Shown: one piece after another, positions 24,323-62,455 of the stretch
Layout of the letters: every line of letters begins with the position of its first letter
Numbering within the stretch: the stretch's first letter is position 1
Origin: Filosporella fistucella
Lineage: Eukaryota > Ascomycota > Leotiomycetes > Helotiales
Direction: 5' to 3'
Length of the DNA: 64,000 nt
NCBI GenBank assembly: GCA_030077755.1
Contig: JAQJZZ010000018.1
Coordinates: forward strand, 2,570,008-2,634,007
The notes under the pieces: generated by a model
Told to the model about the DNA's origin: nothing
What the model saw: the letters and a program-made list of their open reading frames with translations, nothing else
Database searches by the model: none
Translations under genes and position numbers: made by a program

Positions 24323-25282
24323 CTACTCCTGTGTACCTCCTCCATTGACATTCCTAGCAGAGAGTTCTCTCGTTGTGAATCTCCGTCCTTTGTCGCCTGT
24401 CATGCTACTCTCCACAGAATTGCTATGATCTGCTGATCCAATAGAGCCTGTAATAAAGCCAAGTGGTGTCGAATTGGTGCCAAAACTCAGGCTATGACCA
24501 GTGAGCTTCTTGTGTTTGACGATATTGACCAAGCGATTGAGCACCGAGAATTCGACCTTCAGCTTGACAGCATAGATAACAGGTTTGTACGTCGTCTGGA
24601 TCTCCCAATGCCCCGAGTACTCGGTGCCGAGTAGTGTGGCGTCGAGAATCAAAACCAAAGCGTTGACCAAGATGAGATGAAAGAGTAGCTTTTGATGTGG
24701 ATCGGAATTGCGTCCTCTGAAGGGGCCAAACATTCGCACAGTTTCGTATATATAGAATCCTGAGATGATGGACTCTTGAACGAAGAAGGTGCCAACCTGT
24801 ACCTTGTCGAATATTGAAAAGGCGTTGACGACGGAGAGATTGGGATGAGGTTTGTTTGACAGGAACGCCAAGATCATATCAGGGATTCCGATACAGATCG
24901 CGTTGAATATAATCATATAGAGAACCCAGCGAATCCTATCCAGACTTCCAGATACAAGGTGGAGACGGGAGTACAGAACCAAGGACTGCCCAGTTACCAT
25001 GGACATCCACCCGATAGCAATGAGCAAAACAGGCGGCCACCATAGCGGCATGATTTGAAAGAATAGCAGAATGAATCCGACCACATGCGGTGCGATGCCC
25101 CAGGTTGCCGCTACAAAACTCCAGAAATATAGTCCTTCCCGTCGTTTGAAGATCGCGAAGATAATGACGGTGAGCTCTATAACATTATAAAGTGCAATAG
25201 CTGAGAAGGAAACCATGATCATCCATGTTGGGAGATGGGCCACGACAACACCAGTAATACCATTGCTCTGTTCATTAGCCAT
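24323..25282 (-). CDS. Seven-transmembrane fungal protein (DUF7703-like)
   Basis: One exon, 319 aa from ATG 25282. Seven hydrophobic segments can be counted, starting at WMIMVSFSAIALYNVIELTV and ending near ALVLILDATLLGTEY. Loops are short, and the C-terminal tail of about 80 residues is Ser/Thr/Gly-rich and cytosolic-like. Motifs such as GQSLVLYSRLHLVSG and ESIISGFYIYETVRMFG recur in an uncharacterised Pezizomycotina membrane family, which I believe is DUF7703. It resembles the rhodopsin-like fungal integral membrane proteins but lacks their usual Cys pattern. A receptor or sensor role is possible, not shown. Confidence 0.75.
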   Translation of the reverse strand: MANEQSNGITGVVVAHLPTWMIMVSFSAIALYNVIELTVIIFAIFKRREGLYFWSFVAATWGIAPHVVGFILLFFQIMPLWWPPVLLIAIGWMSMVTGQSLVLYSRLHLVSGSLDRIRWVLYMIIFNAICIGIPDMILAFLSNKPHPNLSVVNAFSIFDKVQVGTFFVQESIISGFYIYETVRMFGPFRGRNSDPHQKLLFHLILVNALVLILDATLLGTEYSGHWEIQTTYKPVIYAVKLKVEFSVLNRLVNIVKHKKLTGHSLSFGTNSTPLGFITGSIGSADHSNSVESSMTGDKGRRFTTRELSARNVNGGGTQE

Positions 25283-26176: not shown

Positions 26177-26503
26177 TGTAACGGTTACTTGTTACGGTCG
26201 CTAGGTCTCAGGAGGAGGTGGTGAGCAGGCGTGGTTCTGGGAACCGAGTAGTTCTTAGGATCTCGGCTCCTAGGAGCCAAAGTGTAACGATACGTCGTCA
26301 CTGGGGCTTGGTCACCTGACAAGTTGGATATTAGGAACAGATTCGGAAGGGTTTTAGAAGGGCATATGTATTTAAGGAACTTCTCTCCCTCTCTCCCTCC
26401 CCTAGCTTTCTTGTTTCCTTGGTATCAAACCTAATGATATACGGTTCGCCTCCGTTTATACTCCCATATATAGTTCCGCTTATTATATACTCATGATATT
26501 ACA
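26177..26503. mobile_element. Probable solo LTR
   Basis: The stretch begins TGTAACGG and ends ATTACA, giving the short TG...CA inverted ends of an LTR. Inside are a TATA-like TATTTAAGG near 26,371 followed by a pyrimidine-rich leader (CTCTCCCTCTCTCCCTCCCC), as in fungal LTR promoters. I see no internal coding region and no clear target-site duplication, so the exact ends are uncertain. Confidence 0.4.
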
Positions 26504-26633
26504 ATATATATTATAGATGTTTCCACAGTTTCCCAGAAAGTAACGCGCCGAACCTGTCGTGTGCCCGATGTTCGCGGACATGTTAGCAACGTCGACTAAT
26601 GAGTTGGAGCTACACAATATATTGCACCACAGG

Positions 26634-29600
26634 CACCAGCAATTTTATTTTCCTTCTAGCTTTTGCTAGAGAATTTCAATATACTATTGGAAGGTTCCTA
26701 CAAATTCTTGGGCTGTATCGCGTCAAGTGCGCGTGATATTTGGTGCATGCGAAGTCGAAGCACATTTCGATGGCTTGTGATATACTGCGAGATATCACAA
26801 TACAAGCTGTGGTATTCTTTTTTTCGTTTGAAACTTTGCCAGACAATATCACACTCTAAGAATGGCTCACCTACAAAGGATGAATTGGTTTGCGGTCGAT
26901 TGTAACTTGTGTCTGATGCTTTCCTATCGTCAATAGAACGCCTACGCATCTGCCTTGAAAATGGCAGCATACGCTCCAGCATTTTTGTTTTGTACTAAAA
27001 TGTGTCCCGCGTCTCTAAATATCGTAGAGATTGTGCTAGAGGAGTATCATATCGAAACAGATTGATCTGCACATCTGCTGCTCGATTTTCATCTGTTAGC
27101 CATTACTTGAAGCCCTCGTTACGCTGCCGCATAAGTTCCAGTACACCCTCCATCATTTTTAGTTCCATCCCAGAATTTGTCAGATCATTTCAAAGATCAA
27201 AAAGAGAGATACAGCAAATGATGGGCTTGAAAGAGATCGGTTTGAATTTGTGCTGCTCGGTGATCGGCTGGTTGCCACTGATGAAGTAGCCGGCAGCTTT
27301 CCCGAAAAATTACAGCACACCCTCTGGCCTTTTTTTCTTCGTCCAAAAATTTGTACGATTTTTTGAAAGATTAGGGAGAGAGATCCTGCAAATGCTGGTC
27401 TTGAAACAGATCAATCTACACTTATGCTGCTTGGCGATGGCTCGCGTGCTGTGGATATCGTCGTCGGCGGCTCAACCTAATATTGTACCACACCCTCCAG
27501 CATTTTTATTTTCCTTTACGCTTTTGCAGTCTGTGTATTAATCATTGATAGATTATTCTTGCAAATGCTGGGGCAGGAACGAGTTAATTTGTTCTTGTGC
27601 TACTTCATGTTAGCCCGCCAGCCACGGATACATTCATCGATCACCCACACTAGATGTTGCAGCACAGCCCCCAGTATTTTTATTTCCGTTCAAAATTTTG
27701 CTTACTCAGTCGCAATAATTGATAGATCACTCCTGCAGATGCTGGGTTCGAAACGGGTGAATTTGCGCTTTCATTCCTTGATGTTAGTCCGTCTGTTGGT
27801 GAGACAATCTTTTGTCACTTCAATTGAATCTCGCAGCACACCCTCTAGCTTTTTTTTTTCCGTTCCAAACTTTGTGCCGCAGCTTCTGATATCACAAAAA
27901 ACATTTCTGCAAATGCTGGGATTGGGACGTGTTGATTTGAAGCCGTGCCGCTTCATATTGGCCCGCGTACGCTTATATAGTACTTGGCTACTTCTATAAG
28001 ATCTTGAAGCACACCCTTCAGCTTTTTTATTTCTGAACCAAACTTTATATCATGGCTGCATATAATATAAACAACGTTTATGCAAATACTGGTATGAGAA
28101 CAAGCTAATTTGCACTTGTGCTGCTTCATGTTGGCCTAGAATTCAATAACATTGCCAGTCGCATGTCAATTCTTTCAGCACGCCCTCCAGCATTTTTATT
28201 TTCATACAAGCATTTGCAAGAATGTTTTAGATACTATAGAAAGTATTTCTGCAAAGTTTCATTCAGAAACAGAGTGATTTGGGTTTGTGATACTCGATGG
28301 CATTTTGTTCCTATTAGTAGTAAATATCGTATACATTCAGATATTACGGCACATACTCCAGCATTTTTATTTTCTTATCAAAATTTGCAAGAATGTTTCA
28401 AATACCACTTGAATTATCTGTGCAAAGTTCTATTCTCAAACGAAATGATTTGAGCCTGTCCTGCTTGATGGTAGCCTGTATTCATCAACAGTACTATACA
28501 ATCCTCTCAATTATTAGGGCACACACTCCAACATTCTTCTTTGTGCATGAGTTTTGCAGGATTGCTCTTCGTACCCAGCAGAGTAGTGTGACAAAGTTTG
28601 GTCCTGAAACGACTTGCTTTGAGTCTGTCCTGCTCGATAGTAGCCCGTAATCATTGGTAGCGGATCTTCCATCAACTCAGATATCGTGGCGCGTGCTCCA
28701 GCATCTTTACTTTTGTGCGTGCATTTGTAGAATTGCATTTTATATCCTAGAAAATAATCTCACAAAAATTTATTCTGAAACAACCAGTTTTGAGTCTGTG
28801 CTGCTCGATGGTAGCTTATAATCATTGGTAGTGGCTCTTGCGTGGTCTCAAATCTCTTTACATAGTCCAGCATTTTTATTTTTGCACATAACTTTGCAGG
28901 ATTACTTCTACTCTTTTATGAAGTATATCTACAAAGTTTCGTTCCGAAACAAGGTGGTTTGAGTCTGTGCTGCTCGACATCAGCCTACAGTGACGAGAAG
29001 GGGCGGTCATAGGCCCTTCAAAACCAAAGCATACCTTCTAGCATTTTTCTTTCCGAACGCACATTTGCACAACTCCTTCTAGTAGTCAATAGATTACTTT
29101 TGAATAGTCTTGGCTTAGGACGACTCGATCTCATCCTGTGCTATACAATTTTTAGCCTTGAAGTCAACAGAGAATTTTTACCCCCAGATATGGCAGTACA
29201 CACTACAGCATTTCTATTTTCATATGAGCATTTGTAGGACTCCTTCAAGTAAGTAGAAGACTGGACTCCCAAAATACTGTCCTGGGACGACTCGATTTCA
29301 TCCTGTGCTGACAGATATTCGTGTGGTGGGGTGGAAGCGGGGTCGCCTGCTTGCACATATTGCTATTCACCTCCCATCCTTTTTTACTTTCGTCCAAGCA
29401 TTTGCACACTGGATTGAAATGGTAAGAGGAGGGCTTTTGCAAAGTCTCGGGTTAGGAAGCTTCGATTTCATCCTGTGCTGCTCGATATTCGTTCGCGGTT
29501 AATAGACGCCTTCCAAGTATGCTTCTCGATAGTACACCGTCCAGCATTTTTTCTTTCGAATGAGAATTTCCATGTTGCATCTTAATAGTATGGAGATTAT

Positions 29601-31950
29601 TTCTACAAAGTTTCAGCCTAGAACTGATCGATTTGATCCTGTGCGCCCTGATCCAACGTCCGCGCTTAATATACGTCTGTGAACCATATTTCTCGACAGT
29701 ATACCGTCCAGCATTTTTTCTTTTCGAATGAGATTTTGCACGCTCAATCTTAATAGTATGGAGATTCTTTCCGTAAAGTCTTGGACTAAAAATGATAGAT
29801 TCCATCCTGTGCTCCTCAATTCACGTCCGCGGTTGACATGCCCTTGAACTACACTTTTCGGCAGCACACCCTCCAAATTTTTTTTTTTCGAATGAGATTT
29901 TGCACGCTCAATCTTAATAGTATAGAGATTCTTTCCGCAAAGTCTTAGACTAGAAATGATTGATTCCGTCCTGTGCTCCTCAATTCACGTCCTCAATTCA
30001 CGTCTGCGGTTGTCACATGCCCTTAAACCACACTTCTCGGCAGCACACCTTCCATCATTTTTCTTTCCCTACCAGCATTTGCCTTTCCAATTTCAAGAAT
30101 ATAGAGAGCATCTCTGCAAAGTTTCAAGGTAGGAGGAGTTGGTTTCGTCCTGTGCTCGATGTCGAGAAGTGGGATAGTCGCTTGCCTGACAATGAAGAAT
30201 TCATCGCACAATATCCAGCATTTTTCTTTTCGTCCGAGGAATTGCCATTCTACTCTAGATGGTATAACAAGTAAATTTGCAAGTGCGTAGACTAGGAGGA
30301 CTTCATTTCGCTATGTTCTCGAAACTCGCGACATGTGAATACTGCGTCTCGATAATTTCAGCGCACACCTTCCAACAATTTTAGTTTCGTGCGAAGAGCT
30401 GAATTCTGGCCTTGAATTGTATAAGCAGTATACTCGCAAAGTCATAGGTTAGGAGGATTCTATTCCGTTTTATGGTCGAAGTCCACTATAGGTTTATGAC
30501 GCGTTGGGCTCCTGGGAGAATGATTCAGAGCACAGCCTCCAGCATTTTTCTTTTTGCTTCAGTATTTGCAAGATCATTCTTAACCATAATTATAACATAT
30601 GTGCAAAGTACGAGGTTAGGAGAACCAAACATAATTCTGTACTCGACGTTAGTAAGTCGAAGAGCGTTTCACCCTACCCAAAAGCACTTGAACACAACAT
30701 ATCAAGTTCCAGCCTTTTTCTTTTTGTCTCAGAACCTGCAGGATAGTTTTTCATTATTATTGAAGCGTATATGCCTAGTAGACGCCTAGGAGAACTCATT
30801 TCCATCCTGTGCTCGATGTCTCTGAGCCTAGGTATCTTACCACACTAGCACTTGGATATCATACCTCAACGTCCAGCATTTTTGCTTCGACTCAGCATTT
30901 GCACAACTGTCTTTAATTGAGATTGAAACGTCTCTGTGCGGTTTGAGTCTAGGAGGATCTGAATTCGACTTGTACTTGATGTCTCCTTGTGTCTGATACA
31001 AAAGACTTTTCGCAAGTACTCGGATACCCTGGCATTGCTTGTCGCATATCAATGCTTTCAGCACGCCCTACAGCAATTTTCTTTTGGTGCCCCCATTTGC
31101 AGAATTGTTTGCATTTATATCTATGATTGGTTTCCAACGTTTTAGCCTAGAAGGATGCAAGTTGAGTCTGTGCTGGACGATTCTATTAAACACTTACCCT
31201 GCTTCCGATGGCTCCACGCCACAGCACAGGACCCAGCATTTTTCTTCTTGCACCAAAAATTGTAGGTATACTCCGAATCATATAAATAATGATTTCACAA
31301 AGTCTTAGCTTAGGAGGATTTACTATGCGTTTGTGCCGAGTGACTGTCTTGAAATATTATCAACTTCCCAGGTCCATATCTCTGCCGCGACAGCCAGCAT
31401 TTTTCTTTTCGCTCCGGCATTTGCAGGAATGCTTGGATACATGTCTAAAATTGATCTCTGGCGTTTCAGGACGGGAGGGTCGGAATTGAGTCTGTGCTCG
31501 ATAACTGTAGTCGAATGCTACCTGGCTTCCAATGTCTGCATCGTTCAACATACCCTGCAGCATTTTTAGTTCTGCTCCAGCATTTGTAGGAATACTTACT
31601 TACATGTTTGGAATGGACGTACAGTTTTTGGGAACAGGATGACCTGATTTGCGTCTGTGCCTATCGACTGTAATATAGTGCTACCACGCTCCGGAGCACC
31701 GCAATCTACTATATAGCCTCTAGCATTTTTCATTTAATATCATGCTTTGCAATGTTATATGACAATATGAGAAAAACATATCTGCAAATGCTAGGGCTGT
31801 TACTAGCCCCTTTAAATATATATCTGGCTGGTGCCTGAAATATATGAAATCAAACCTTATATTAAAGCAATATAGGTTATATCTCCGCGTCCAGCATTTT
31901 CTTTTATATTCAAGAATTTCCGAGACTATTTTTTATAAAAAAAAGAATAT
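26634..31950. repeat. Degenerate ~170-bp satellite, about 32 units
   Basis: A tandem array in which each unit carries box A (CCAGCATTTTTCTTTTCG-like), then a GCATTTGCA box about 20 bases later. A second conserved block (CTGCAAAGT, then about 20 variable bases, then GTCCTGTGCTCGATG-like) follows about 50-70 bases further on. Box A starts near 26634, 26808 (weak), 26976, 27147, 27320, 27497, 27670, 27844, 28017, 28187, 28358, 28528, 28698, 28867, 29038, 29205, 29367, 29541, 29708, 29873, 30052, 30215, 30372, 30539, 30709, 30873, 31070, 31233, 31394, 31557, 31720 and 31891. The spacing is mostly 161-179, mean about 170. The second block changes gradually along the array. The last two units fade into AT-rich DNA. 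Open frames inside are not genes as far as I can tell. Confidence 0.9.
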
Positions 31951-32526
31951 ATTCAAGAATTCCTAGGATAGTATTAGCCCTTTTTAATATAAGCTTAATT
32001 ATAATTCTAATTTAATATTATTTAATTAAGAAATAATCTTTAATAAAATAATATAAATTCTTAATAAAATAACAATTTCTCAAATTATTAAATAACTTTA
32101 ATAAGAGCTTAATAATTATATTAAATTATAAGCACTTAATATTATAATTATTTAATAAATTATTATAAGACATATAAATAAAAGGTAATTTAATAAGTAA
32201 AATAAGTTATATTTTAATATAAGACTAAACTCTAGCCTTTTGAAATAATAAAATTAAATTATTTAAAGGATGCTTAAGGGGTTCTTATAAATTGCCAAAT
32301 ATAATTAAATAATTAAAGTTATATAAAATTATAATTTTAATTATATACCTAACATTAGTTATCGTCATTCACACCGTGAATGGGTTTTTTTATAGTAGTG
32401 AAATTAAAGTGTAATCTATGCCCAGTTATAGCGTGAATAGGTTAACCCCAAGTAACCCCAAACCCATTATTACCGCTTATACATTGCCTAAAATCATTTT
32501 AAAATATCATAAATAGCCAAGGAGCC
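31951..32526. other. AT-rich spacer, leader of the first TLH relic
   Basis: Very AT-rich with no readable gene. A short palindrome (CATTCAC-ACC-GTGAATG) lies near 32,367-32,383. From about 32,380 the sequence aligns with the leader of the telomere-proximal TLH copy. Confidence 0.6.
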
Positions 32527-35500
32527 ATGGCTTAACCTATCCCCGAAGCATTGGATTATATTATTGCATTAAATGTTAAGTTTGGCATATTAATTTATTT
32601 ATAGTGCAAATATATAGTTTCGCCTACCGCCATTTCCTAACATTTAGGTAATAAGCACAAAACCCTAATCAAATTATAAAAAGAGTTAAATAAGTATATT
32701 TAAACATTTCCATTTTAATATAATTATACTAGTATACGATTGCCTAATAATGGATTAGCGCCCTAGCCCATTATTCCCATTTTAAATGGCTATTTATATT
32801 AGGATTGCCCATATATGAGCCAGAACCGAGACGTTATACGGTAGCATGGGAATAAGATCCATAATAAGAAAAGGGTTTCCGATAAAGAATTATTTAAGAT
32901 AGTTAAGTTATAATTATGGTTTAATAATCAATAAGCCCGATATTGGATTATTAACTAAAGCAAGTAATACGAGCAAGAGCGATAGAGGCGCCGAGCTATA
33001 ACACGTAATATTAGAGAAGAAACCAACAATTTAGACCATAATAATAATAATAATGTTAATAATAATAAAAGCGACCAGGATAATATTAATAACCAGATTA
33101 TCCAGGATATTAAAAAATGGAAGGGTAAGGCCTAGGAGCGGTGATTGCGGATATTAAAAGAAGTGCCTATCATTAAAATGGATTCGTGATTATGGTATAT
33201 AAAGTGGAATGAGGTATTAAGCTAATCCAAGCACAATTTGGTCAAGATATTCCATTATACCCATATACCCGACCTAGATGAACCGCAATTAAAGCGATTA
33301 TTACGTGCATGGAATCGAATTTTAAAGCGTTATTTAGACACATTGGAAGCAACCGACCATAAAAACGCATTAAAGTGGTAGGCATTACCCAAAAATAAAG
33401 CCGCGGACTAGCGCCCATTTAAGTTACTACAAAATGCCAAAAGCATTAATAAGTATAATGGAATTTTTACATGTTTTATTTATTATATAATGCGTATAGC
33501 GCCATTAGAAAATCATATAAATGAAATAGGTATATTAGATTATTTTTAATAATTTAAATATAATTTCCAAAATATAATAGAAAATTTGACTATAATTATA
33601 AAAACCGGAGTAAAATATACCAACGCATAATAAAAGTGCATCCAAAGAATCCGGAGTAAATTAGATAAAAAAGTAATAAATAATAATATAAAAGATTAAC
33701 TATTAACCAGTGCATTAATGTATTTATATATATTAACCATAATGCAGAATACTAGCCGAATTAGATTATATTATTCACCCATAATGCATTATTTAGCCAT
33801 CCGAGGTATTAATAAGCAAAGCCAGTTATTGCGATCCGCATTTTTTTATATGCCCATTTTAGTAGGCATATTATGGATCAATCGATTAATTATATTAAAA
33901 GTAGCCGTCCCATATAAGCCATGGCCGGAATTAAAATTAGATAATAAAGCCGATATCAATTCCGTGCCCGATCAAATCTATAAGTTATAATAATTGCATT
34001 TATGTAAGGGTTCATTTTTACCCATATCTAATATTTTAACATAATTGGCCATAGGAAAGAAATTCAATAAAACGCACTAGTTACCATCTAATATCCATTG
34101 GTCGGATAATGAATAGACAATTAATTATTTAAGCCAGCCAGTTATATTAGCTAAGGTCTAGAGCATATGTCACGCATTAATTAAAGAATTGCAGGAATTA
34201 ATAAAAGTGTTAACATTTGGATCCCTAGTGCCCCCTATCGATTTGAGTCGAATTATTAATAATATGGCATGGAGCCAAGCATTTCGGCAATAAAATTTCA
34301 GTTTTATTAATTATGCCCAAAATTAGGACCAGGTAGGCGGGGATTATAAGTTTTTATTAAAGCGAGCACGGAAAAGAGAAGGCTAGTAGAGGTTATTAAG
34401 GACAAACCACGCCACCAAGAAAGTTGAATAAGTGGATTCGCAAGTTATATTATATTTAACCAAGAAACGTCAATTTTTATAGAAGTTAATAATATATATA
34501 CATATTACCGGTATATCCGCCCATTCCATTTATTATACGGTTATTTATTAGATTAGGAGGCTAGCCCGCACGTGGACCCGAATTAGGATTTATTAAAGTA
34601 AGTAATAATATATATTCGGCACGTAATATATATATTATAAATGGTCGGATATGTTTTTTAACCATGTATAATAAGGCGCGGAAGAGAAGAGGGAATATAG
34701 AATATATTATACGGTGTTTATTAAATGATGTTAGCCAAATTATAGCCTAGTATTTAATACGAGTTCAACCATTTGCCCGGGCATTAGATTATCGTGAGTC
34801 AGAATATTTATTTAAGGATTTATAAGGACCATGGGCCGGGGAGGAATTAAGCCAGGCGTTAGGGAGCGTTACCAGAAAGCATTTAAGAGTATATTTAAAG
34901 GCATCCGGATAGAGGCATACCGCAATTGGAATTGCTACCCGGAAGTTAATGCGGGCTAGCAAGACGTGGGAAAAGGAGCATAAGGAGCCCGAAGATAGAG
35001 TTAAAGAGTTTGCCGAAGGAGATAATAATAAGGAATTAGAGTTGGATACATTTTAATATATCATGGTCCGGTAAGTTTAATTTCCTTAGCCGGGCGGGGG
35101 AAATAATATATATTGTGAAGGGATAGGAAGTGTGCCGTCTGAGTGCACGATAAACAACACAATAACCAAAATAATAGGGGTGGTATTTGAAAGAAGAAGA
35201 AGGATTACATTATTAAGTTATGCTCGGGCTACACTATATGTGAAGTGAGCACCGGAGCGGAAAAACTATCTACCGGTAAAACACATGACCTAAAATCACG
35301 GGGCTTCAACCCCACCACAATATAAAATATTTAATTAATATAGAGTATAAGCAATCCGGATATGGACGTAGGGTAGCGCAAGCGCATTATGCCATTAATA
35401 GGGCATTTTTATATCAATTAGGGCCCGAGTTAATCACGGCATATAAGCAAGCATTAATAGCATAGCATGGATTATGGAAATTAGGCCGTAATAGCATTGG

Positions 35501-37505
35501 TAATAGTTATAGTATAGGAGGAACCGGTCATTAACGTAAAGCCAGCTAGCAGTTAATTAATTGGCCTATTAAGAGAGAGCGGATTAAAGGATCCGATCTA
35601 GCATTAGTTAAATTATAACGGATATACCATGATTCCTAAGCCAAATCACGATTAAAAGGATAGGCGTTAGCATTATAATTAATCCATTATCCATCTAAAA
35701 CACAACCATTAATCATTATATTACCCACTAGCAATGGCAAGTTAGCATTATTTTTTTTAGTGGCAGTAATAACCTAATAATAGACGGTCATCATTATAGT
35801 GCCATTTGCCGCATTAGTGGATAACATTATTACGCGTGGGCAAGCAGCCGGTTTAAATTGCGAGGAATAGATTAATGAGAAATCCGGACACGAATTATAA
35901 TAATTAATTATAATTAGCGTAGACCGGGCAGTCTAAGGGGAGTTTTTGCATTACGCCAAGGGGTTAGAATTAAAAGGGCAATTAGCCCATATATTTTTTA
36001 ATAAAGTCCATGTTATATTTATAAATACATCATACCGCGAGCGGTTATGAGATTTATAGACATTATAATATTTGAATTGCCCGTTTACCGGATTAATAGC
36101 AACGTTAATAATTAATTTGGAAGATATATTACGCGAGCGGTTATGTATTAATAATGCCCAGATATTCCGGCGGAGTATAGCGCGGAAAACCATTCGATAT
36201 TAAGTGAGAGATAATAAGAACGAGGTGCCATCGGACATAGCTATCAAATTTATCTAATAAGCACATTTGGGCGTAGGGAAGAGAGGTGTTATATACGTAT
36301 GGAGTTATGAGATAGGAGGAGTGGTTAGTTAAGCATTGGATTGCCCGTTTTACCGAGCACGAATAGAATCCAAAGGGGAGGTATTATAATAATGGGTTTA
36401 GGGTGCCGGCGGATGGATCGTTGCCACCGGGGCATTAGGAACAGGAATTAATATTAAAGGGATCATATATGTGGTTCATATTAGGCGACCATATAGGTTA
36501 ACTAGTTTTATCTAGCAATCCGGACGTGGGGGGCGGAATAGAGAGGTTAGTGAGTCGATTATTATTACGCGGGTTAAGAATAATAGCGGACGAAGACGAA
36601 GCGAAATCATGAGCGAGTATTCCATTAAGCAAATTGATAAGGATGCCATAATAGAATTTATCCAAGGGTAAGGATATTAACGTTAGGTTTTAAGTCGATA
36701 TATAAACGGAGATCAAGACGGGAGCAGTTATAGCCAAACGGATAATGTATTTTATGACCGGTGCAGGATAAGTAGCAAGGCAAGGGGCCCGAAAGGAGAA
36801 GAGTTAATAGAGAAGCCCGGGATGCATATCATAGAAGATAGCATAGTAATCAAGGGAATAGATATCATCTAGGGTAGGTTAAGGGAAGTGCAAGCATTAT
36901 AAGACCAGATGATTAAGGTTATGGATCGATTATAAGGCGATTGCATATATTATGGATTAATGCATTATAAGCAGGCGAGAGGCAAGGCACACGCATATAA
37001 GGATTATCCATAGGCAATTGCGTCCGGGTGCGGGATTATAGCATATGAAGCATAAAGAGCGAATATTAATTTAGGAGAGTTTTAGTATTATTGGAAGTGT
37101 GGATTATCGTAATAAATATGCCGGCATTTAAAAAATAATAAGTGGTGTGAGTACCCCGAGGTAATATTGCCCGGGATATATATATTATACTAGTAGTAGC
37201 ATTTGCAAGTAATTATCGAGGTAGCGGGATTCCAAGGGGATTATGCGGTTAACGTTTAGGAGTGGTTAAAGGAGGTCGGAGAGGGGTTTAGTCAGGATTG
37301 GGAGAGTAATTAGATAAAGACATGGCGGATGGCATGTGAGATATATAATAGAATAAAGGAGGAGGATAAATAGGTATAAAGAGGATATATTAAGACCGAT
37401 AAAGATTAGAGGCCAAGGGGAATGGCAGAGCACCCATAGTTAGTAGGGGAGGGAGAGGCCAGGTTATTGGACATTAAGAGGGTTAGGGTTATTATAGATT
37501 TTTAA
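32527..37505 (+). pseudogene. RIP-mutated telomere-linked RecQ helicase (TLH relic 1)
   Basis: Reading stop codons as lost Gln, the frame from ATG 32527 gives the TLH/DUF3505-type N terminus, then LLRAWNRILKRYLDTLEA and QNTSRIRLYYSPIMHYLA. After a recognisable 46-base intron (34,511-34,556) comes a PARGPELGFIKVSN block and a C-terminal RHTAIGIATRKLM segment. From about 35,340 follow helicase motifs: I PTSNGKL, Ia VPFAALVD, II NKVH, III LIATL, V VATGALGTGIN, VI QSGRGGRN. A Cys-rich tail (KCGLS..ICRHL) closes the gene at 37505. Motif I has lost its Ser (GKS to GKL), and NKVH stands for DEAH; each change is a single C-to-T or G-to-A step. A break at 35,060-35,330 is an unresolved intron or insertion. 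It is clearly non-functional. Confidence 0.88.
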
Positions 37506-37634
37506 AGACCCAACCCCAAACCCAACCCATCGGCGCGAAGCGCCAATTGTGACCCCGTAGGGTTGAAATGGGCATGCGGGTCAAGGGGGGCATTTATATG
37601 TAGGTGGGGGAGGGTTAGGGTTATAAAGGAGACT

Positions 37635-37745: not shown

Positions 37746-38251
37746 GAAGTATCCTTTATATTAGGGCTAGAAGCCTATTTTTTTCTTTATTTAATAGCCC
37801 TAAATCTAAGCTATAAAATAAGTCTTTAAGTAAGATTTTATATTAAGAATTGATTTAAATATTAAATAAAATACTTAAAGTATTTTTACTTTCAATTTGG
37901 CCCGGCTAGACCACGGCTACGCTAGGCGAAACCTCGGCTTAACCGAGGAACACCAAAATTTAAAAGTAAGTAAAATGCCTTTTTTATAATACATAAATAA
38001 TAACGTTTATTAAATGAAAATATAATATATAATATTGAATATTAAAAGCATTTAAAAATAATTTAATAAAAATATAATTTATTAAATTAAAGATTAATTA
38101 ATTAAAAATTAAATAAAAAGATATTAAATAAAAGATATAATATTAAAGGCATAATATTATTTATATTATTACTTATAATATTATTTATATTATTACTTAT
38201 ATTAATATTTAAATTATTATTAAAATTATTATTTAAAGTATTAATTAAAGT
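37746..38251. other. AT-rich spacer with an imperfect long inverted repeat
   Basis: Near 37,880-37,975 a GC-richer core containing the palindrome CCTCGGCTTAACCGAGG is flanked by complementary A/T-rich arms (TTTACTTTCAATTTGG against CCAAAATTTAAAAGTAA). No gene is seen. Confidence 0.45.
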
Positions 38252-38384
38252 ATTACTTATATTATTACTTATATTATTACTTATATTATTACTTATATTA
38301 TTACTTATATTATTACTTATATTATTACTTATATTATTACTTATATTATTACTTATATTATTACTTATATTATTACTTATATTA
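38252..38384. repeat. 12-bp microsatellite (TTACTTATATTA)n
   Basis: About eleven near-perfect copies of a 12-base unit. It directly abuts an A-run at 38,411-38,428 and the SINE-like element. Confidence 0.9.
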
Positions 38385-38428
38385 ATATTTACTTATATTT
38401 TAATTTTAAGAAAAAAAAAAAAAAAAAA

Positions 38429-40440: not shown

Positions 40441-40587
40441 ATTATCGGATATAATTATCGTAACCATAGGTAACCAAATTTATTTAATAATATTTATCTT
40501 TTCATTTTTATTTTCTTTTTCTTTTCTTTGTTTAGAGTTTACTCTATAAAATAACCTATTTAAAGCTTACCCTTAAAAGTTATCTTT

Positions 40588-41100
40588 ACCTTACTCCTTA
40601 TATCCGCCCTTACTTTACTCCTTATATCCGCCCTTACCTTACTCTTTATACTCGCCCTTACCTTATTCCTTATACCCGCCCTTACTTTACTCTTTATATC
40701 CGCCCTTACCTTATTCTTTATATCCGCCCTTACCTTACTCTTTATATCCGCCCTTACTTTACTCCTTATATCCGCCCTTACCTTACTCTTTATACTCGCC
40801 CTTACCTTATTCCTTATACCCGCCCTTACTTTACTCCTTATATCCGCCCTTACCTTACTCTTTATATCCGCCCTTACCTTATTCTTTATATCCGCCCTTA
40901 CCTTACTCTTTATATCCGCCCTTACCTTACTCTTTATATCCGCCCTTACCTTACTCTTTATATCCGCCCTTACCTTACTCCTTATACTCGCCCTTACCTT
41001 ACTCTTTATACTCGCCCTTACCTTACTCCTTATACCCGCCCTTACTTTATTCCTTATACCTGCCCTTACCTTATTCCTTATACTTGGTCTTATATTTGCC
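40588..41100. repeat. 24-bp minisatellite, ~21 copies, upstream of TLH
   Basis: Unit CCTTACTCTTTATATCCGCC plus four bases (CTTA), with a few variant positions (TCC/CTC/CCC, TTA CTC/TTC). Because 24 is a multiple of three, the plus-strand frame shared with the TLH gene stays open through the entire array (LTLLFISA per unit). No ATG occurs in it. A TAA at 40561 closes the frame upstream. Confidence 0.95.
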
Positions 41101-41196
41101 TTTCTTTTATATTTGCCTTTATTTTATTTTAAATATTTAACTTTTACTTTACTTTTTATATTTGCTTTAATTTTATCTTTTATATTGTTATTTAAA

Positions 41197-44100
41197 ATGT
41201 CTAATTCTATTTTATATTATAGTGCAAGTGATAACTTTAAAGATATAAAAGAACTTAATTTTTTATCTTATTATCCAAGTTTTAAATTATTACTTTGTTC
41301 TACATGCAATTTGGGTTTAGTCCTTTCTTCTTTTAAAATGCATTTAATAAGACACTTAAAATTATATTCTAAAAAAGACCGCGATTTAATTATATCTAAG
41401 AGCTTAGATATATTAAAAGGTATAGAGATTAATAATCTTAAAGAGAGTTTAAGTTTACTTATTTTATATTCCAAAAATAATAATCCTTTAATATTTAAGG
41501 AGTTAAAATTACTTGATTTATTTGCTTGTACTTATTTAAATTGTAATATTATTTTAAGTAGCGAGTATTCAATTAAAAGGCATATAAGAGAAAATCATAA
41601 GGATTTAAATAATCTTATTACCTCTAATTCTTATCCTTATAAAGTTATTAAAGGGCAAGCTTTAGAAATTAATAAATTCTTTTTTCAAGTAAATATTATT
41701 AATAATAATATATCTACTATTATAAGTAATTCTAATAGTTTAGAAGATAATAATAAACTTATTATTCAGGATAATTTTAATAGCTTAAATGATAATCCTT
41801 TATTACAAGAAGCAAAAGATAACTTTTTAAGTAAATATAATCAAAAAAAGGATATATTTAATAAAGAATTAAGTAATTTTAAATTAGATCCTATAGAGAA
41901 ACTTAGTCCTTTTCAAATTAAAACTCGATATATTGAATATATTAATAAGTATAATATCCAAGATTTAATTGAATTAATTAGTCCATTAAAAGAAGAGGAA
42001 AAGATATTAGAAGTCTTAGTCTTAAATCTTAAAGAAACTTTATATTTAAGTTTAGATAAAAGTCTTTTCTTAAATAAAGTGCATTTAAATTTACTTAATA
42101 GTTTTGAGGATAATAAAGTACGAAATAAGCCCTTTAAACCTTTATTAAATAGTTCTAGTCGAGTTAAATATTTTAATCTTTTTAGTTTATTTATTATCTT
42201 TTTTTTTCGAGCCTTAAGTAAGAGTATAAAGGAAAAGATTTCTTATTTTAAAGTAGATAATAATATTCTTAATTTATATAATAAGATAAATACTTTAGTA
42301 GGTAATCAAATAAAAGAAGAAGAAGAAGAAAATTACTTAGAGTTAAGTAATAATTCTTATAAAAAAAATAAACAATTAATTAATTCTAAATTAAATCTTA
42401 TAAAATTACATAATAATATTAATTTCCAAAAATTAGAAGATGAAGATTCTAATAGTTCTAGTTCTTTTTCTTCTTCTAATTTATCTAATTTAAATACTAT
42501 AAGTATAGAAAGTTTAGATTCTAATTTAGAATTGGATTCTAATTCTAATTCTAATTCTAGCTCTAATTCTAATTTAGATTTTTTATTAAATAGTTCTAAT
42601 ATTAATATCTTAAATAAAATAAAAGAAATAGATAAGTTATCTAATTCTAAGAGCCTAGAAATAAGAAAACTCTTAGTAGAATTAATAATTAAGCTCTTAA
42701 AACAAAAGACTGATTTATATATATTTGATTCTTGTTTTAATTCATTTTTTAGTATAATTAGTATTAGAATTAAAGATAATTCTTTTAAAGATAGTCAAGA
42801 TATTAGTCAAGATTATTCAAAGTTTATATATAGTATTCAATTAATTATTATTGAGTATTCTTTAACGAGTTTACTTAATAATCCTAGCTTGGATTTAACT
42901 ATGATTTTAAAAGAATTTAAAGATAAGTATCTTAATAATAGTACAAATAGTGCTTTAAGTGAAGTATTAAATAATCGAGCCTATTGCTTTAAAGTTAATA
43001 AAGAAACTAGTACACAAACTTATATTAGTATTAGTCTTAAAGATAAAGAGACTATTTCTTATAAAAAGGTTACACTTAGTTCTAATAACCTTAGAGTCTT
43101 ATTTAAAGAATTAATAAGTAGTACTTATAATATATTAATAGAAAAATTACTTTTTAATATCTCTAAGACTTTATATAAAGATATTACATTAGAAAAGTAC
43201 TCTAAATTAGAGGATCGGTCTTTAACTATTCCTTTTCAATGCTTTCGAGACTTAAGCCCTGATTTAGAAGCTAATAATAATTTCTTAAAAGATTTAATAT
43301 TTAAAGATAGTTCTTTATTTAATAAATTCTTTATATTACAAGATACTACTTTAATTTTTAATCGAGATAATATAAATAAGTACCTAAAAGATCTCTTGGA
43401 ATTTAAAAAGTCTTGCTTATTATTGATATATCTTACTAGCGGATTACCTCTCCGAGGAACCGAATTAGTTACCCTTCGATATCTTAATAGTTTTAAAGAT
43501 AAAAGGGAAATATTTTTAGATATTAGTAGTAATTTATTTATAATTAATATTTCATATTATAAAGGCCAAGGGCTAAGCGAAAAGAAAGCATCTAATATCC
43601 GTTATTTACCACCTAGCGTATCTTATATATTTTTATTATATATTGTTCTTATTGATCCGTTTATTAATTTTTTAAATATTAGTTTATTATCCCCTAAAAA
43701 GTTAAAAAAGGCTAAGAGTTTAATGCCTTATTACTTCTTTATTAAAAATCGAATATTAGATTCTCGGGACCTTAGCTTAAAGTTAAGCTCTTTTTCTAAT
43801 TTAATATTAGGGAAAAAGATAGGTATTCAAGTATATCGACAAATTATAATTACTATTATTAAGGAGTTTATGCTAGAAAAGTTAGATTTAAATACTTTAT
43901 TATTAGATAAAGAGGAAAATACTTTAAATAAGCTAGTAGCTAATCAAAGTAATCACTCTAGTCAAGTCGAAGACCTTAATTATGGGCGGAGTAATATTAT
44001 ATTTAATAATATAAATTCAAATTTGCAATTTAAGTATTTAAATTTCTGCCTTCGGTATTTTGCTTATTTTAAATTAGATTTATTAAATATTCAAGTAGAG

Positions 44101-46020
44101 TCTTATATAAATCAATTAAATATTCAAAATAATAGAAAGAGAGAAGAAGATCTTAATATTACTAATAGTTTAGCTATAAGATATTCTCAATCTAAAGACT
44201 TTTCTCTTACTTCAAAAAAACATAATAGACAAGTCTCGTCTATTAGTTCTAATAATTTAGAAATTAATAAGAGATTAAAGACAAAAGATTTAATAGATCT
44301 TAGTAGTATAAGCTCTAATTCTATTCTCTTAAATAAATTACTTCAAGAATTTTTAAATAATAATCAAGCAAGTTTTCGAAGTTTAGAGCAAGAACTTTTA
44401 TTAAAGTCTATATTATTAAAAGTTCCTTATATTTTAGGAGTTTTACCTACTAGTATAGGTAAATCTCTTATTTATCTTCTTACTAGCTCTTTAAGTATTA
44501 GTAAAGTTACTATAGTTATATTACCTTTAATAGGATTAAAATATAATATCTTAGAGAGAGCTAAAGCTTATAATATTCCTTGTACTATTTATGAAGAATC
44601 GCAAAGCTTTACTAATCTTACTTTAATTAGTATAGAGACTATAATTAATGAATCCTTTATTAATCAAGTTAAGGATCTTATTAACTCTAATAAATTAGAT
44701 CGGATTATATTTGATGAGTGTCACTTACTTATAAGCGCTTCGAATTATCGTTCTATTATGTTTCGATTTAAAGAGTTATTAATATTAAAAACGCAATTTA
44801 TATTTTTAAGTGGTACTTTGCCTTATCAATTTGAGTTAGAATTAATTAAAAGTTTATTTTTAAGTAATATTTGTATTATAAGAGCGGATTGTACTAGATA
44901 TAATATTAGTTATCAAGCAAAGCCATATATATCTAATAAAGAAGAAGATAAACTCCGTCAAATTCAGGACTTTATTATATCTTTTAAGGCTAAAGAATTC
45001 TTAAGTTTAAAAGATAAGATTCTTATATTTTGTCCGAGTATTAAAGAAATCGAGCTAGTGGCAGATGCTCTTAATTGTGCTCGATATTACGCTTCTTTAA
45101 GCGAAGAAGTAAAAGTATCTACTTTAAAAGCGTTTTTTACTAATAAAGAAGATTATTATAATATTTTAGTTACTAGTAGTAGCTTAGAAGAAGGTCTTGA
45201 TTATTCCTCTATTCGATTAGTTATTTATAAAGATATGGCTTATTCTTTTCTCGGGTTTTTACAAGGCTCTAGTAGAGGAGGAAGAGATAATAAATCAAGT
45301 AGTTCAATCTTCTTTTATAACCCTAAATCTTTAAGTAAAGAAGAATCTAATAATAATAGCTTATTAAATAAAGATAAGAATTTAGTTTACCGTTATTTAT
45401 TAGAGACTACGTGTCGAAGAAGACAAATTACGTTATATTTAGATAATAAAATACAAGAAAGTTGTTCTTTAAAGGATAACCCTTGTGATCTCTGCTTTAA
45501 TAGATCTAATATTATTAATAAGCAAGTAAATCAAATCTTAGAAAACTCTAAGGAAGTTGAATTAGAGCGGACTAAGATTAAAGATCAAATTTATAATTTA
45601 GGGCCTTATTGTTTATTTTGTAAACTTATGCAATCTAGTCTTACTTATAATAATTTACACTCTTCAAGTAATTGTTTAATATATAAGCATATAGAAAAGC
45701 AAAGTAAAGAGATTAAATTATTTATATCTCAAAAGCAAATTATTTTAAAAGAAGATAGTTGTTGTTTTTATTGTTTATTACCTACGGTTATTTGTACGTT
45801 TTTAAAAGAAAATAATATTTGTTATAATTTTAAGTTATTTTATCGCGTACTTGCTATTTTATATAATCAAATTGATGCTTTAAATTTAAGGGTTAAATAT
45901 AATCTCAAGGCAAATATTACTTTATATGAGTTTGTAGTTAAGCTATTAAGTAAGGTTTTTATAAAGGAATTAAATACGGAAGGGATTCTTGGGTTTTATA
46001 TATTTGTTTATGATTCTTAA
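41197..46020 (+). CDS. Intact telomere-linked RecQ-family helicase (TLH)
   Basis: 1,607 aa from ATG 41197, the first in-frame ATG after the minisatellite. Residues 30-130 hold two C2H2-like fingers (CSTCNLGLVLSSFKMHLIRH; CTYLNC...H). A Ser/Asn-rich linker lies near 450-500. A middle domain includes GLPLRGTELVTLRYL (Arg753). Helicase motifs follow: I LPTSIGKSLIY (near 1084), Ia VILPLIGLKY, II FDECHLL (Asp1173), III FLSGTLP, IV ILIFCPSIKE, V LVTSSSLEEGLDY, VI QGSSRGGRD (near 1356). The RecQ zinc region is CRRRQITLYLD...CDLC (near 1430), with a further Cys-rich tail. Catalytic Lys, DECH and Arg are kept, though motif I reads TSIGKS rather than TGxGKS. The family sits beside telomeres in many fungi and is thought to help telomere maintenance by recombination. 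The codons are extremely AT-rich, yet no stop interrupts 4.8 kb. Confidence 0.93.
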   Translation: MSNSILYYSASDNFKDIKELNFLSYYPSFKLLLCSTCNLGLVLSSFKMHLIRHLKLYSKKDRDLIISKSLDILKGIEINNLKESLSLLILYSKNNNPLIFKELKLLDLFACTYLNCNIILSSEYSIKRHIRENHKDLNNLITSNSYPYKVIKGQALEINKFFFQVNIINNNISTIISNSNSLEDNNKLIIQDNFNSLNDNPLLQEAKDNFLSKYNQKKDIFNKELSNFKLDPIEKLSPFQIKTRYIEYINKYNIQDLIELISPLKEEEKILEVLVLNLKETLYLSLDKSLFLNKVHLNLLNSFEDNKVRNKPFKPLLNSSSRVKYFNLFSLFIIFFFRALSKSIKEKISYFKVDNNILNLYNKINTLVGNQIKEEEEENYLELSNNSYKKNKQLINSKLNLIKLHNNINFQKLEDEDSNSSSSFSSSNLSNLNTISIESLDSNLELDSNSNSNSSSNSNLDFLLNSSNINILNKIKEIDKLSNSKSLEIRKLLVELIIKLLKQKTDLYIFDSCFNSFFSIISIRIKDNSFKDSQDISQDYSKFIYSIQLIIIEYSLTSLLNNPSLDLTMILKEFKDKYLNNSTNSALSEVLNNRAYCFKVNKETSTQTYISISLKDKETISYKKVTLSSNNLRVLFKELISSTYNILIEKLLFNISKTLYKDITLEKYSKLEDRSLTIPFQCFRDLSPDLEANNNFLKDLIFKDSSLFNKFFILQDTTLIFNRDNINKYLKDLLEFKKSCLLLIYLTSGLPLRGTELVTLRYLNSFKDKREIFLDISSNLFIINISYYKGQGLSEKKASNIRYLPPSVSYIFLLYIVLIDPFINFLNISLLSPKKLKKAKSLMPYYFFIKNRILDSRDLSLKLSSFSNLILGKKIGIQVYRQIIITIIKEFMLEKLDLNTLLLDKEENTLNKLVANQSNHSSQVEDLNYGRSNIIFNNINSNLQFKYLNFCLRYFAYFKLDLLNIQVESYINQLNIQNNRKREEDLNITNSLAIRYSQSKDFSLTSKKHNRQVSSISSNNLEINKRLKTKDLIDLSSISSNSILLNKLLQEFLNNNQASFRSLEQELLLKSILLKVPYILGVLPTSIGKSLIYLLTSSLSISKVTIVILPLIGLKYNILERAKAYNIPCTIYEESQSFTNLTLISIETIINESFINQVKDLINSNKLDRIIFDECHLLISASNYRSIMFRFKELLILKTQFIFLSGTLPYQFELELIKSLFLSNICIIRADCTRYNISYQAKPYISNKEEDKLRQIQDFIISFKAKEFLSLKDKILIFCPSIKEIELVADALNCARYYASLSEEVKVSTLKAFFTNKEDYYNILVTSSSLEEGLDYSSIRLVIYKDMAYSFLGFLQGSSRGGRDNKSSSSIFFYNPKSLSKEESNNNSLLNKDKNLVYRYLLETTCRRRQITLYLDNKIQESCSLKDNPCDLCFNRSNIINKQVNQILENSKEVELERTKIKDQIYNLGPYCLFCKLMQSSLTYNNLHSSSNCLIYKHIEKQSKEIKLFISQKQIILKEDSCCFYCLLPTVICTFLKENNICYNFKLFYRVLAILYNQIDALNLRVKYNLKANITLYEFVVKLLSKVFIKELNTEGILGFYIFVYDS

Positions 46021-46146: not shown

Positions 46147-47240
46147 ATAAAGGGATTAATAACGTTATTAAGAAGGTAGATTATTTATAAGGTTATTATA
46201 TAAGAGGAAGGTTAATTAAATATTAAGTTTTCCTTTAGCTATAATATATACTTTAATAGCGGGCCTATTTGCACAGGATTTTAGGGATTAATTATTATAG
46301 GTTTATTATATAATTTAGCCGAGTAATATACGGATTTTTATAAGCTTAGTGTCTTATTTATAATTGCCGGGTAGGGGTAGTGTGAAAGTATTAGATAAGG
46401 GCGGGGTGGGTAAAATAATCAATTCCTTTTAGCCGTAATAAATCCTTTTGTTACGGACCTATTTGCATAGAATTAAAGGGATAGATTATCAAGCCTATAT
46501 TATATAATTTAGCCGAGTCATATACGGATTTTTATAAGCTTAGTGTCTTATTTATAATTGCCGGGTAGGGGTAGTGTGGAAGTACTTGACGAGGGCGGGG
46601 TGGATAAAATAATCAAATCCTTTTACCCGTAATAAATCCTTTTCTTGAAGGCTTATTTATATGGGATTTTAGGGATTAATTAATATAGGTTTATTACGTA
46701 ACTTAGCCGAATAATACATGGATTTTTATAAGCTTAGTGTCTTATTTATAAGTGCCGGGTAGGGGTAGTGTGAAAGTATTAGATAAGGGCGGGGTGGGTA
46801 AAATAATCAAACTCTTTTAACCGTAATAAACCCTTTTATTACGGACCTATTTGCATGGGAATTTAGGGATAAATTATCAAGCCTATATTATATAACTTAG
46901 CTGAGTAATATACGGATTTTTATAAGCTTAATATTTTATCCCTAAGTGCTATATAAGCATAATATATAAAGTTTAAATAAGGGTAAAATAAGAATAACTC
47001 TAAATTATTTCAGGCTATAATAAATCCTTATATTATACGCTTATTTGCATAGGATTTTAAAAATAAATTAACATAATTATATTATATAATTAACTTAATT
47101 AATATATGAGTTTTTATAATTATTAAGAAAGGATAATATATAAATATTAAATAAGGGCAATTTAAATAATATAATACATTACTTTTATTTATATTTAATT
47201 TCTTAATAATAAACTTACTTATATCAGCGATTCTTAATTT
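46147..47240. repeat. 194-bp satellite, about 5-6 copies, downstream of TLH
   Basis: The anchor TAAGCTTAGTGTC starts at 46341, 46535 and 46729, and degraded forms occur at 46923 and about 47117, so the period is exactly 194. Units share GCCGGGTAGGGGTAGTG and a GGGCGGGGTGGGTAAAATAA block. The first and last units are strongly diverged; the inner ones are close to each other. Confidence 0.9.
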
Positions 47241-61950: not shown

Positions 61951-62455
61951 GTTATAATTATAATTATGGCCTAAGGCTTAATAAACCGGTTAAGCTATAT
62001 AGGGAATTATGGTTAAAGAATTATAAGGCAAATATTATATAATTAAATTAAGAGAATTAAATAAATTAAGGGAATTAGTTCTTAATTTAATTAATTTATA
62101 TTAATTTAAATAATTTATTAAGGAATAAAGATTTTATATAAGATTAGCACTTTTGCTATTAAATAAGAGCTTTATGCTTAATTTTAAATAATATTCTTTA
62201 TATTTAATAATATTATAATTAAAATGTATTTATAATATACTTATTCCTTATTTAAAATTATTATATAAGCATTAGCCTAATTCTAGTTTTCAAAGATTAT
62301 AATATAATTAGGTTTTTTTTATATAATAAAATTAAGGTATAGTCCATATAAGCACCTAATTAAAGTATAATATAGTCTAATTAACCCTAATCCCATAAAT
62401 CCAGCCCACATAGCCATCTAATTTATTTATAAATTATATATAATAAAATAAAACC

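What the first reader, a model, noticed from the sequence alone, without database searches (positions are those of the whole stretch)
26634..31950. ~170-bp nucleosome-scale satellite at the border between gene-rich and AT-rich DNA
About 32 diverged units of regular length separate normal chromosome from subtelomere. Units are too different from each other to trigger RIP, unlike everything distal. Conserved boxes keep their spacing while the rest varies, suggesting constraint or array-specific duplication. It could act as a heterochromatin boundary, a recombination site or a nucleosome-phasing array.
Basis: partly seen in the sequence, partly recalled or inferred. Interest (0 to 1): 0.8.

Follow-up and report, generated by a model that had tools for sequence, protein, structure and literature searches.

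The report
Unique constrained satellite near chromosome end
Near one chromosome end of a fungus lies a single array of about 32 old, very different copies of a 170-base sequence whose inner 120 bases keep fixed landmarks and fixed spacing, which suggests that each copy is held by a DNA-binding protein, although what it does is not known.

Summary
The array is real: 32 head-to-tail units (26623-31999), mean pairwise identity 48%, neighbours 58%, so it grew by local tandem duplication. No second cluster was found in the 45.8-Mb genome, and 11 other chromosome ends carrying all or part of the same terminal block lack it. Each unit has two parts. A ~120-bp core is rigid in net length (24 of 29 units exact, 5 off by 1 bp) and holds conserved boxes at fixed offsets. 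The ~49-bp linker varies in length (37-78 bp) and sequence. Conservation is more uneven and clustered than under equal rates on the fitted tree (0 of 200, and 0 of 500 without box A). The core consensus is two-fold symmetric (35 of 61 pairs), but partners do not co-vary, no stable hairpin appears and no frame is open. I favour a DNA-level protein-binding platform at an old chromosome end; a neutral relic is the main rival. A general end boundary and nucleosome phasing are not supported. Transcription, binding and chromatin could not be tested.

The parts
26623..31999 (+). whole tandem array, 32 head-to-tail units, all in one orientation
   Evidence: profile R1 + strand hits from 26623 to 31999; unit table
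26962..31836 (+). 29 central units used for the alignment and model (model positions 1-120 = rigid core; linkers of 37-78 bp between cores)
28174..28300 (+). best-scoring core, the type example: outer box CAGCAC, box A CCAGCATTTTTATTTTC, TTTGCA, TGCAAA, weak right outer box (TGTG)
   Evidence: 89.8 bits; offsets from CCAGC over 29 units: GCACAC -9, TTTGCA +26, TGCAAA +63, TGTGCT +99
29541..30051 (+). youngest local duplications (units 29541, 29708, 29873; 71-89% identical)
31720..32055 (+). decayed, AT-rich distal edge units merging into AT-rich DNA
   Evidence: unit 31720 matches the consensus at 47 of 77 well-conserved columns against 54-67 in the other 28; GC 0.31 and 0.26 in the two matches
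26283..26505 (+). proximal neighbour: dispersed repeat with TGTAAC...TTACA ends, looks like a solo LTR
   Evidence: 12 further places, many partial, at 73-85%; ends read
32297..37632 (+). terminal subtelomeric block; at six other ends all or part of it reaches within 400 bp of the contig end; here it is internal
   Evidence: 88-92% copies at C1R, C3L, C6L, C10L, C14R and C16L; telomere repeats listed beside it for C1R, C3L and C6L, the list being cut off before the others
37612..37622 (+). GGGTTAGGGTT, possible vestige of a former telomere at the distal edge of the block
   Evidence: sequence; the same edge meets the telomere at C1R and C3L

Best explanation
A single-locus satellite that grew by local tandem duplication just inside a former chromosome end. 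Each unit carries a ~120-bp two-fold symmetric DNA module (outer CAGCACA/TGTGCTG, inner TTTGCA/TGCAAA, plus the one-sided T-tract box CCAGCATTTTTnTTTTC), joined by a free ~49-bp spacer. Shown: the array, its single-locus distribution at the sensitivity used, conserved boxes, rigid net core length, symmetry of the consensus without base-pair co-variation, and no open frame. Inferred: each core is contacted at several points by a sequence-specific, probably dimeric, DNA-binding protein, so that contacts must keep their distance and helical phase while the letters between are free. Thirty-two such sites would make a dense platform that could insulate or silence at the euchromatin/subtelomere edge, much as Drosophila TAS-R repeats do with Mod(mdg4)-N. 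The platform step and the boundary step are increasingly speculative.
For: Net core length within the profile match is exact in 24 of 29 units and off by 1 bp in 5, whereas 25 of 27 adjacent linkers differ in length (adjacent cores differ in 9 of 28). In 27 adjacent pairs box identity is 0.773, non-box core 0.619 and linker 0.623: letters between boxes are as free as the linker. Spread, clustering and best six-column mean of column conservation were not reached by any of 200 equal-rate simulations, nor by any of 500 when box A, which was used to cut the units, is left out. Boxes scored without the alignment sit at one offset in 16-20 of 29 units. The profile matches the reverse strand of its own units at 25 places, 23 in exactly one dyad register and all 25 within one base of it. 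Complementary cells at that register number 647, against 344-461 at 18 slid registers; 35 of 61 consensus pairs are complementary, and 9 of 11 pairs with both columns at 0.9 bits or more. Partners do not co-vary (647 against a permuted mean of 663.5, SD 12.5), so the symmetry is in the DNA letters and not in a stem.
Against: No binding protein, transcript or chromatin data. No second locus or relative species could be examined. Rate heterogeneity is moderate (gamma shape 2.7, or 3.6 without box A); the number of nearly random columns does not exceed the simulations (117 of 200 reach it), and with box A left out 5 of 500 reach the count of columns at 1.2 bits or more. Free pairwise alignment did not show fewer gap openings in the core than in the linker (66 and 65). 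Recombination among units breaks the single-tree model. The alignment began from fixed-length slices anchored on box A, which favours gap-free cores. The array is absent from 11 other ends, so it cannot be needed for subtelomere function in general.
Confidence: 0.42

Rival explanations
1. Neutral relic: an old palindromic sequence (for example a MITE-like element, or a 62-bp head-to-head duplication) was amplified by unequal exchange and is now drifting. Apparent boxes reflect short-tract gene conversion and context-dependent mutation.
For: Neighbour similarity decays with distance (0.576 at 1 unit to about 0.47 at 7 or more), as expected from unequal exchange. Both edges are decayed. Rate heterogeneity is only moderate, and free pairwise alignment shows no deficit of core gaps. 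The consensus palindrome could be inherited.
Against: Single strongly conserved columns stand among variable neighbours (70 and 97, also 54), finer than conversion tracts would give. Net length is nearly fixed in the core but free in the linker. 9 of 11 well-conserved dyad pairs are complementary. No dispersed relative was found.
Confidence: 0.33
2. Small-RNA or hairpin-RNA source: units are transcribed and each core folds or carries a conserved guide, like the tapiR satellite of mosquitoes (recalled).
For: Box A is a ~16-bp conserved stretch in an otherwise variable unit. Mean folding z of the core on the + strand is slightly low (-0.56 over 29 units against +0.13 over 32 control windows).
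Against: No co-variation, no consensus structure, no Rfam family at gathering score and only two weak single hits below it. Box A with up to 3 mismatches has only one place outside the array.
Confidence: 0.12
3. Nucleosome-phasing or heterochromatin-boundary array, with a T-tract once per nucleosome.
For: Period of 157-197 bp and one T-tract per unit in box A. It sits at the composition border.
Against: The overall period drifts; the ~120-bp core, not the period, is fixed. Absent at 11 other ends with all or part of the same distal block.
Confidence: 0.1
4. Decayed coding repeat (a gene with tandem exons of ~120 bp and introns of ~50 bp).
For: Rigid cores and free linkers of intron-like length look like exons and introns. 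The longest ATG-started frame listed inside the array is 144 aa (27565-27999).
Against: In every frame of both strands most of the 29 cores hold stops (at best 12 of 29 have none), and codon-phase means are nearly equal (0.85, 0.76, 0.80 bits). Splice-site-like GT/AG are not invariant at the core edges (column information).
Confidence: 0.03

Closest known systems
Drosophila TAS-R subtelomeric repeats bound by the insulator protein Mod(mdg4)-N (PMC9723646; abstract and passages seen)
   Same: Tandem subtelomeric repeats; there, tandem binding of the protein increases enhancer blocking, which is the working model proposed here
   Different: No sequence relation was tested; TAS-R lies on several chromosome arms; here there is one locus and no binding data
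Satellite DNAs with conserved boxes, e.g. CENP-B-box-like motifs in Meloidogyne satellites (PMC3694981; abstract and section list seen) and alpha satellite (recalled)
   Same: Tandem non-coding units with short conserved motifs in diverged sequence
   Different: Those are abundant satellite families; this is a single 5.4-kb locus beside a subtelomere. A CENP-B box was not searched for here
Subtelomeres of RIP-active fungi, e.g. Neurospora (PMC2596135; passages seen)
   Same: AT-rich, RIP-marked DNA near the telomere
   Different: Neurospora subtelomeres are described there as not consisting of tandem repeats; this end has a satellite with negative RIP indices
MITE-derived tandem arrays (recalled)
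   Same: Symmetric unit with inverted ends CAGCACA/TGTGCTG
   Different: No dispersed copies found at the sensitivity; target-site duplications not looked for; the linker is part of the repeat

Membership tests
Satellite DNA | head-to-tail tandem non-coding units | tested here: met
   32 units in one orientation; no open frame in the 29 cores
Satellite DNA | high copy number, usually at many loci | tested here: not met
   one locus; no other cluster found
Subtelomeric (TAS-like) satellite | shared by several chromosome ends | tested here: not met
   0 of 11 other ends examined; the remaining ends were covered only by the genome-wide patterns
Nucleosome-phasing array | constant period near the nucleosome repeat length | tested here: inconclusive
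   mean 169 bp, but 157-197 bp with a freely changing linker
Nucleosome-phasing array | regularly positioned nucleosomes | not testable with these tools
   no MNase data
Hairpin or structured RNA cluster | compensatory base-pair changes | tested here: not met
   647 paired cells against a permuted mean of 663.5; RNAalifold predicts 0 pairs
Coding tandem repeat | open frame with codon-phase conservation | tested here: not met
MITE-derived array | inverted terminal repeats | tested here: met
   CAGCACA...TGTGCTG in the consensus, imperfect
MITE-derived array | dispersed copies | tested here: not met
   none at the sensitivity, which could miss single diverged copies
MITE-derived array | target-site duplications | not tested
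   not looked for
Insulator or boundary element | bound by a protein and blocks spread of chromatin or enhancers | not testable with these tools
   needs ChIP or reporter assays

The most novel reading that the evidence does not exclude
A filamentous fungus with RIP keeps one purpose-built, 32-fold array of a two-fold symmetric ~120-bp protein-binding module at a chromosome end. Its copies are diverged beyond what RIP detects, and selection maintains box letters and core geometry in nearly every copy: a locus-specific chromatin or chromosome-maintenance platform of a kind I did not find described for filamentous fungi in the listings of nine searches of the paper library.
Probability: 0.27. 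Interest if true: 0.75.

Novelty: new variant of a known kind. Interest (0 to 1): 0.48.

Why it matters
Long tandem repeats should be destroyed by RIP, and neutral satellites should not keep a fixed internal geometry. At this one locus the units are too diverged for RIP, yet ~120 bp of each keeps box letters and net length while the linker between is free. If the constraint is confirmed between strains, it gives a simple deletable locus for asking whether a repeat array sets the edge of subtelomeric chromatin in a fungus. The work also shows that the array is not a general feature of this fungus's chromosome ends.

Tried and rejected
Hairpin RNA: reverse-strand profile hits first suggested stems; permutation, folding z-scores and RNAalifold did not support them. 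Coding repeat: rigid core and intron-sized linker suggested exons; stops in all frames and nearly equal codon phases rejected it; the ATG frames did not change this. Known RNA families: none at gathering score; two weak single hits (U3, and a viral stem-loop family), read as chance. Conservation periodicity: a 9.0-bp peak of power 6.6 is not significant by a rough count of about 65 independent frequencies, made by hand. Dispersed relatives: one outside hit to the box (C7:402791, 3 mismatches); the profile finds nothing at E 1 or better in 9 kb around it. The loose dyad pattern gave 48 rows (6 in the array; six other sites counted on both strands) against 25 for the reversed control; outside the array no two different sites lie near each other. 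The box pattern recovers 11 of 32 known units and the right-half pattern 4, so a second array of this size would probably be noticed, but single copies could be missed.

Results that do not favour my reading: symmetry of the conservation profile itself (correlation 0.33 at the dyad register) is exceeded by three other registers. The excess conservation of complementary over non-complementary pairs is weak (p 0.036). The dyad register ranks first among 70 in only 13 of 29 single units. Gap openings in free pairwise alignment (66 core, 65 linker) do not show the core deficit; I judged the penalties too lax and relied on net length and box offsets (another count with longer motifs gave 18-23 of 29 units at the modal offset). 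The TTTGCA search has a second offset (+61, 11 units) that overlaps the TGCAAA box. Net core length is measured within the local profile match, which is shorter than 120 positions in some units.

The species was placed only roughly: among the named rows, the best relatives of the DUF7703 protein are Acephala, Phialocephala, Stipitochalara and Mollisia. Papers: for PMC9723646 and PMC2596135 I saw passages, for PMC3694981 and PMC13081366 the abstract and section list, for all others the search listing only.
Full report
Where it lies. The window is the last 64 kb of contig C16 of a 45.77-Mb, 19-contig genome and ends in 95 bp of TTAGGG. A DUF7703 protein encoded 1.3 kb inside the array (24323-25282) has its best named relatives in Acephala, Phialocephala, Stipitochalara and Mollisia, so the organism is probably a helotialean fungus.

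Observation. A profile from 29 central units finds 32 units on the + strand from 26623 to 31999. Anchor-free autocorrelation has its best lags at 163-174 bp and multiples. Mean pairwise identity is 0.476; at distance one it is 0.576 and it decays to about 0.47 by seven units, so growth was by local tandem duplication. The youngest duplications are at 29541-30051 (up to 0.89 identity). Three edge units were left out of the model and of the later counts over 29.

How unique it is. The 636-bp and 5351-bp pieces find only this array in the genome. The 25-mer box pattern with up to 3 mismatches has 12 hits: 11 here and one on C7 without a profile match around it. The right-half pattern has 4 hits, all here. 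The box pattern sees 11 of 32 known units, so another array of this size would probably have shown, but single copies could be missed.

Position. Window 32297-37632 is a subtelomeric block; all or part of it reaches within 400 bp of the contig end at C1R, C3L, C6L, C10L, C14R and C16L at 88-92% identity. Telomere repeats are listed beside it for C1R, C3L and C6L; that list was cut off before the others. C10R has a strong copy about 5 kb inside its end, and C7R, C15L, C17R and C19R have partial copies at 72-77%. In this window the block ends in GGGTTAGGGTT at 37612-37622 and is followed by 26 kb of further subtelomeric DNA, whose tip (62454-63906) is a second, 77% copy of part of the block. I read this as an older chromosome end extended by another end; the array then lay about 5.6 kb from the old telomere. 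I fetched about 8 kb inside the block, or the block-like piece, at 11 other ends. None has a profile match better than E 0.06 (best: one 52-bp match at E 0.066), and the best periodicity score in 100-230 bp is 10.2, from an AT-rich minisatellite at C14R, against 24.3 here. The array is therefore not a general boundary of chromosome ends in this fungus.

Anatomy. The unit splits into a core (model positions 1-120) and a linker. Net core length within the profile match is exact in 24 of 29 units and off by one base in five; linkers run from 37 to 78 bp, and 25 of 27 neighbouring linkers differ in length, against 9 of 28 neighbouring cores. Boxes scored without the alignment (5 of 6 letters or better) sit at one offset from CCAGC: GCACAC at -9 in 20 of 29 units, TTTGCA at +26 in 17, TGCAAA at +63 in 16, TGTGCT at +99 in 20. 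In 27 neighbouring pairs identity is 0.773 in boxes, 0.619 in the rest of the core and 0.623 in linkers. The letters between boxes are as free as the linker, but their number is not. Free pairwise alignment did not show fewer gap openings in the core than in the linker (66 and 65); I treat those core gaps as alignment noise, which is a judgement.

Constraint. On the maximum-likelihood tree GTR with gamma rates beats equal rates (BIC 7190 against 7265; shape 2.7). Equal-rate simulations did not reach the observed spread, number of columns at 1.4 bits or more, clustering or best six-column mean (0 of 200 each), while the number of nearly random columns was ordinary (117 of 200). With box A removed, which had been used to cut the units, spread, clustering and six-column mean were still unreached in 500, and the count of columns at 1.2 bits or more was reached in 5. 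Caveats: recombination among units violates the single tree, heterogeneity is moderate, and the alignment began from fixed-length slices.

Symmetry. The profile also matches the reverse strand of its own units at 25 places with E up to 1; 23 lie exactly in the register i + j = 124 at one end or both, and all 25 within one base of it. Complementary cells number 647 there against 344-461 in 18 slid registers. In the consensus 35 of 61 pairs are complementary, and the register ranks first among 70 in 13 of 29 single units. Dealing partners anew among units gives 663.5 on average (SD 12.5), so partners do not co-vary. Mean folding z-scores are -0.56 and -0.13 on the two strands of 29 cores, against +0.13 and +0.18 in 32 control windows, and RNAalifold predicts no pair. 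The symmetry is thus a property of the DNA letters, either inherited or read by a symmetric protein, and not of an RNA stem.

Mechanism. A feature that tolerates substitutions between landmarks but hardly any net length change, on one symmetric module repeated 32 times with free spacers, is what a multi-contact, probably dimeric, DNA-binding protein would impose. Binding, and what binding does, are inferred. The nearest working parallel I found is Drosophila TAS-R, where tandem association of Mod(mdg4)-N with subtelomeric repeats increases enhancer blocking (PMC9723646, passages). The main rival is a neutral relic of an amplified palindrome. Against it stand the core/linker contrast in net length, single strongly conserved columns, and 9 of 11 well-conserved dyad pairs being complementary.

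RIP. Only one unit pair exceeds 0.80 identity and it spans about 165 bp; from recall, RIP needs longer duplicates.

Verdict. A real, unusual, single-locus satellite with evidence of constraint; its role is open. It resembles known satellites with conserved boxes and differs in being one locus, very diverged, split into rigid core and free linker, and set beside a RIP-marked subtelomere.

Noticed in passing
41113-46020 (+): A 1635-aa open frame in DNA of about 19-25% GC with RIP-like dinucleotide indices matches OrsD, DEAD and Helicase_C domains, so it looks like a telomere-linked RecQ-type helicase gene (name recalled) that has stayed open although its composition is RIP-like. A genome-wide count of copies did not complete.
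   Followed up: partly
32297-37632 and 62454-63906: Compound chromosome end: a block that at other ends reaches the contig end is internal here, ends in an 11-bp telomere-like sequence (37612-37622), and a second partial block copy (77%) sits at the present tip.
   Followed up: partly
26283-26505: Solo-LTR-like dispersed repeat (TGTAAC...TTACA) just proximal to the array, with 12 further places in the genome.
   Followed up: partly
35110-35325: A ~210-bp segment missing from the block at other ends occurs at 22 other listed places at 88-100% identity (query 3108-3326), so it is probably a short mobile element inserted into the block here.
   Followed up: no
46242-47059, 40586-41082, 38151-38399: Other tandem arrays in the distal part: 194-bp units, 24-bp units (20.7 copies) and 12-bp units (19.5 copies).
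   Followed up: no
L049:4100-4980: At chromosome end C14R an AT-rich minisatellite with nested 25/44/69/166-bp periods lies a few kb inside the same terminal block; it does not match the array profile.
   Followed up: no
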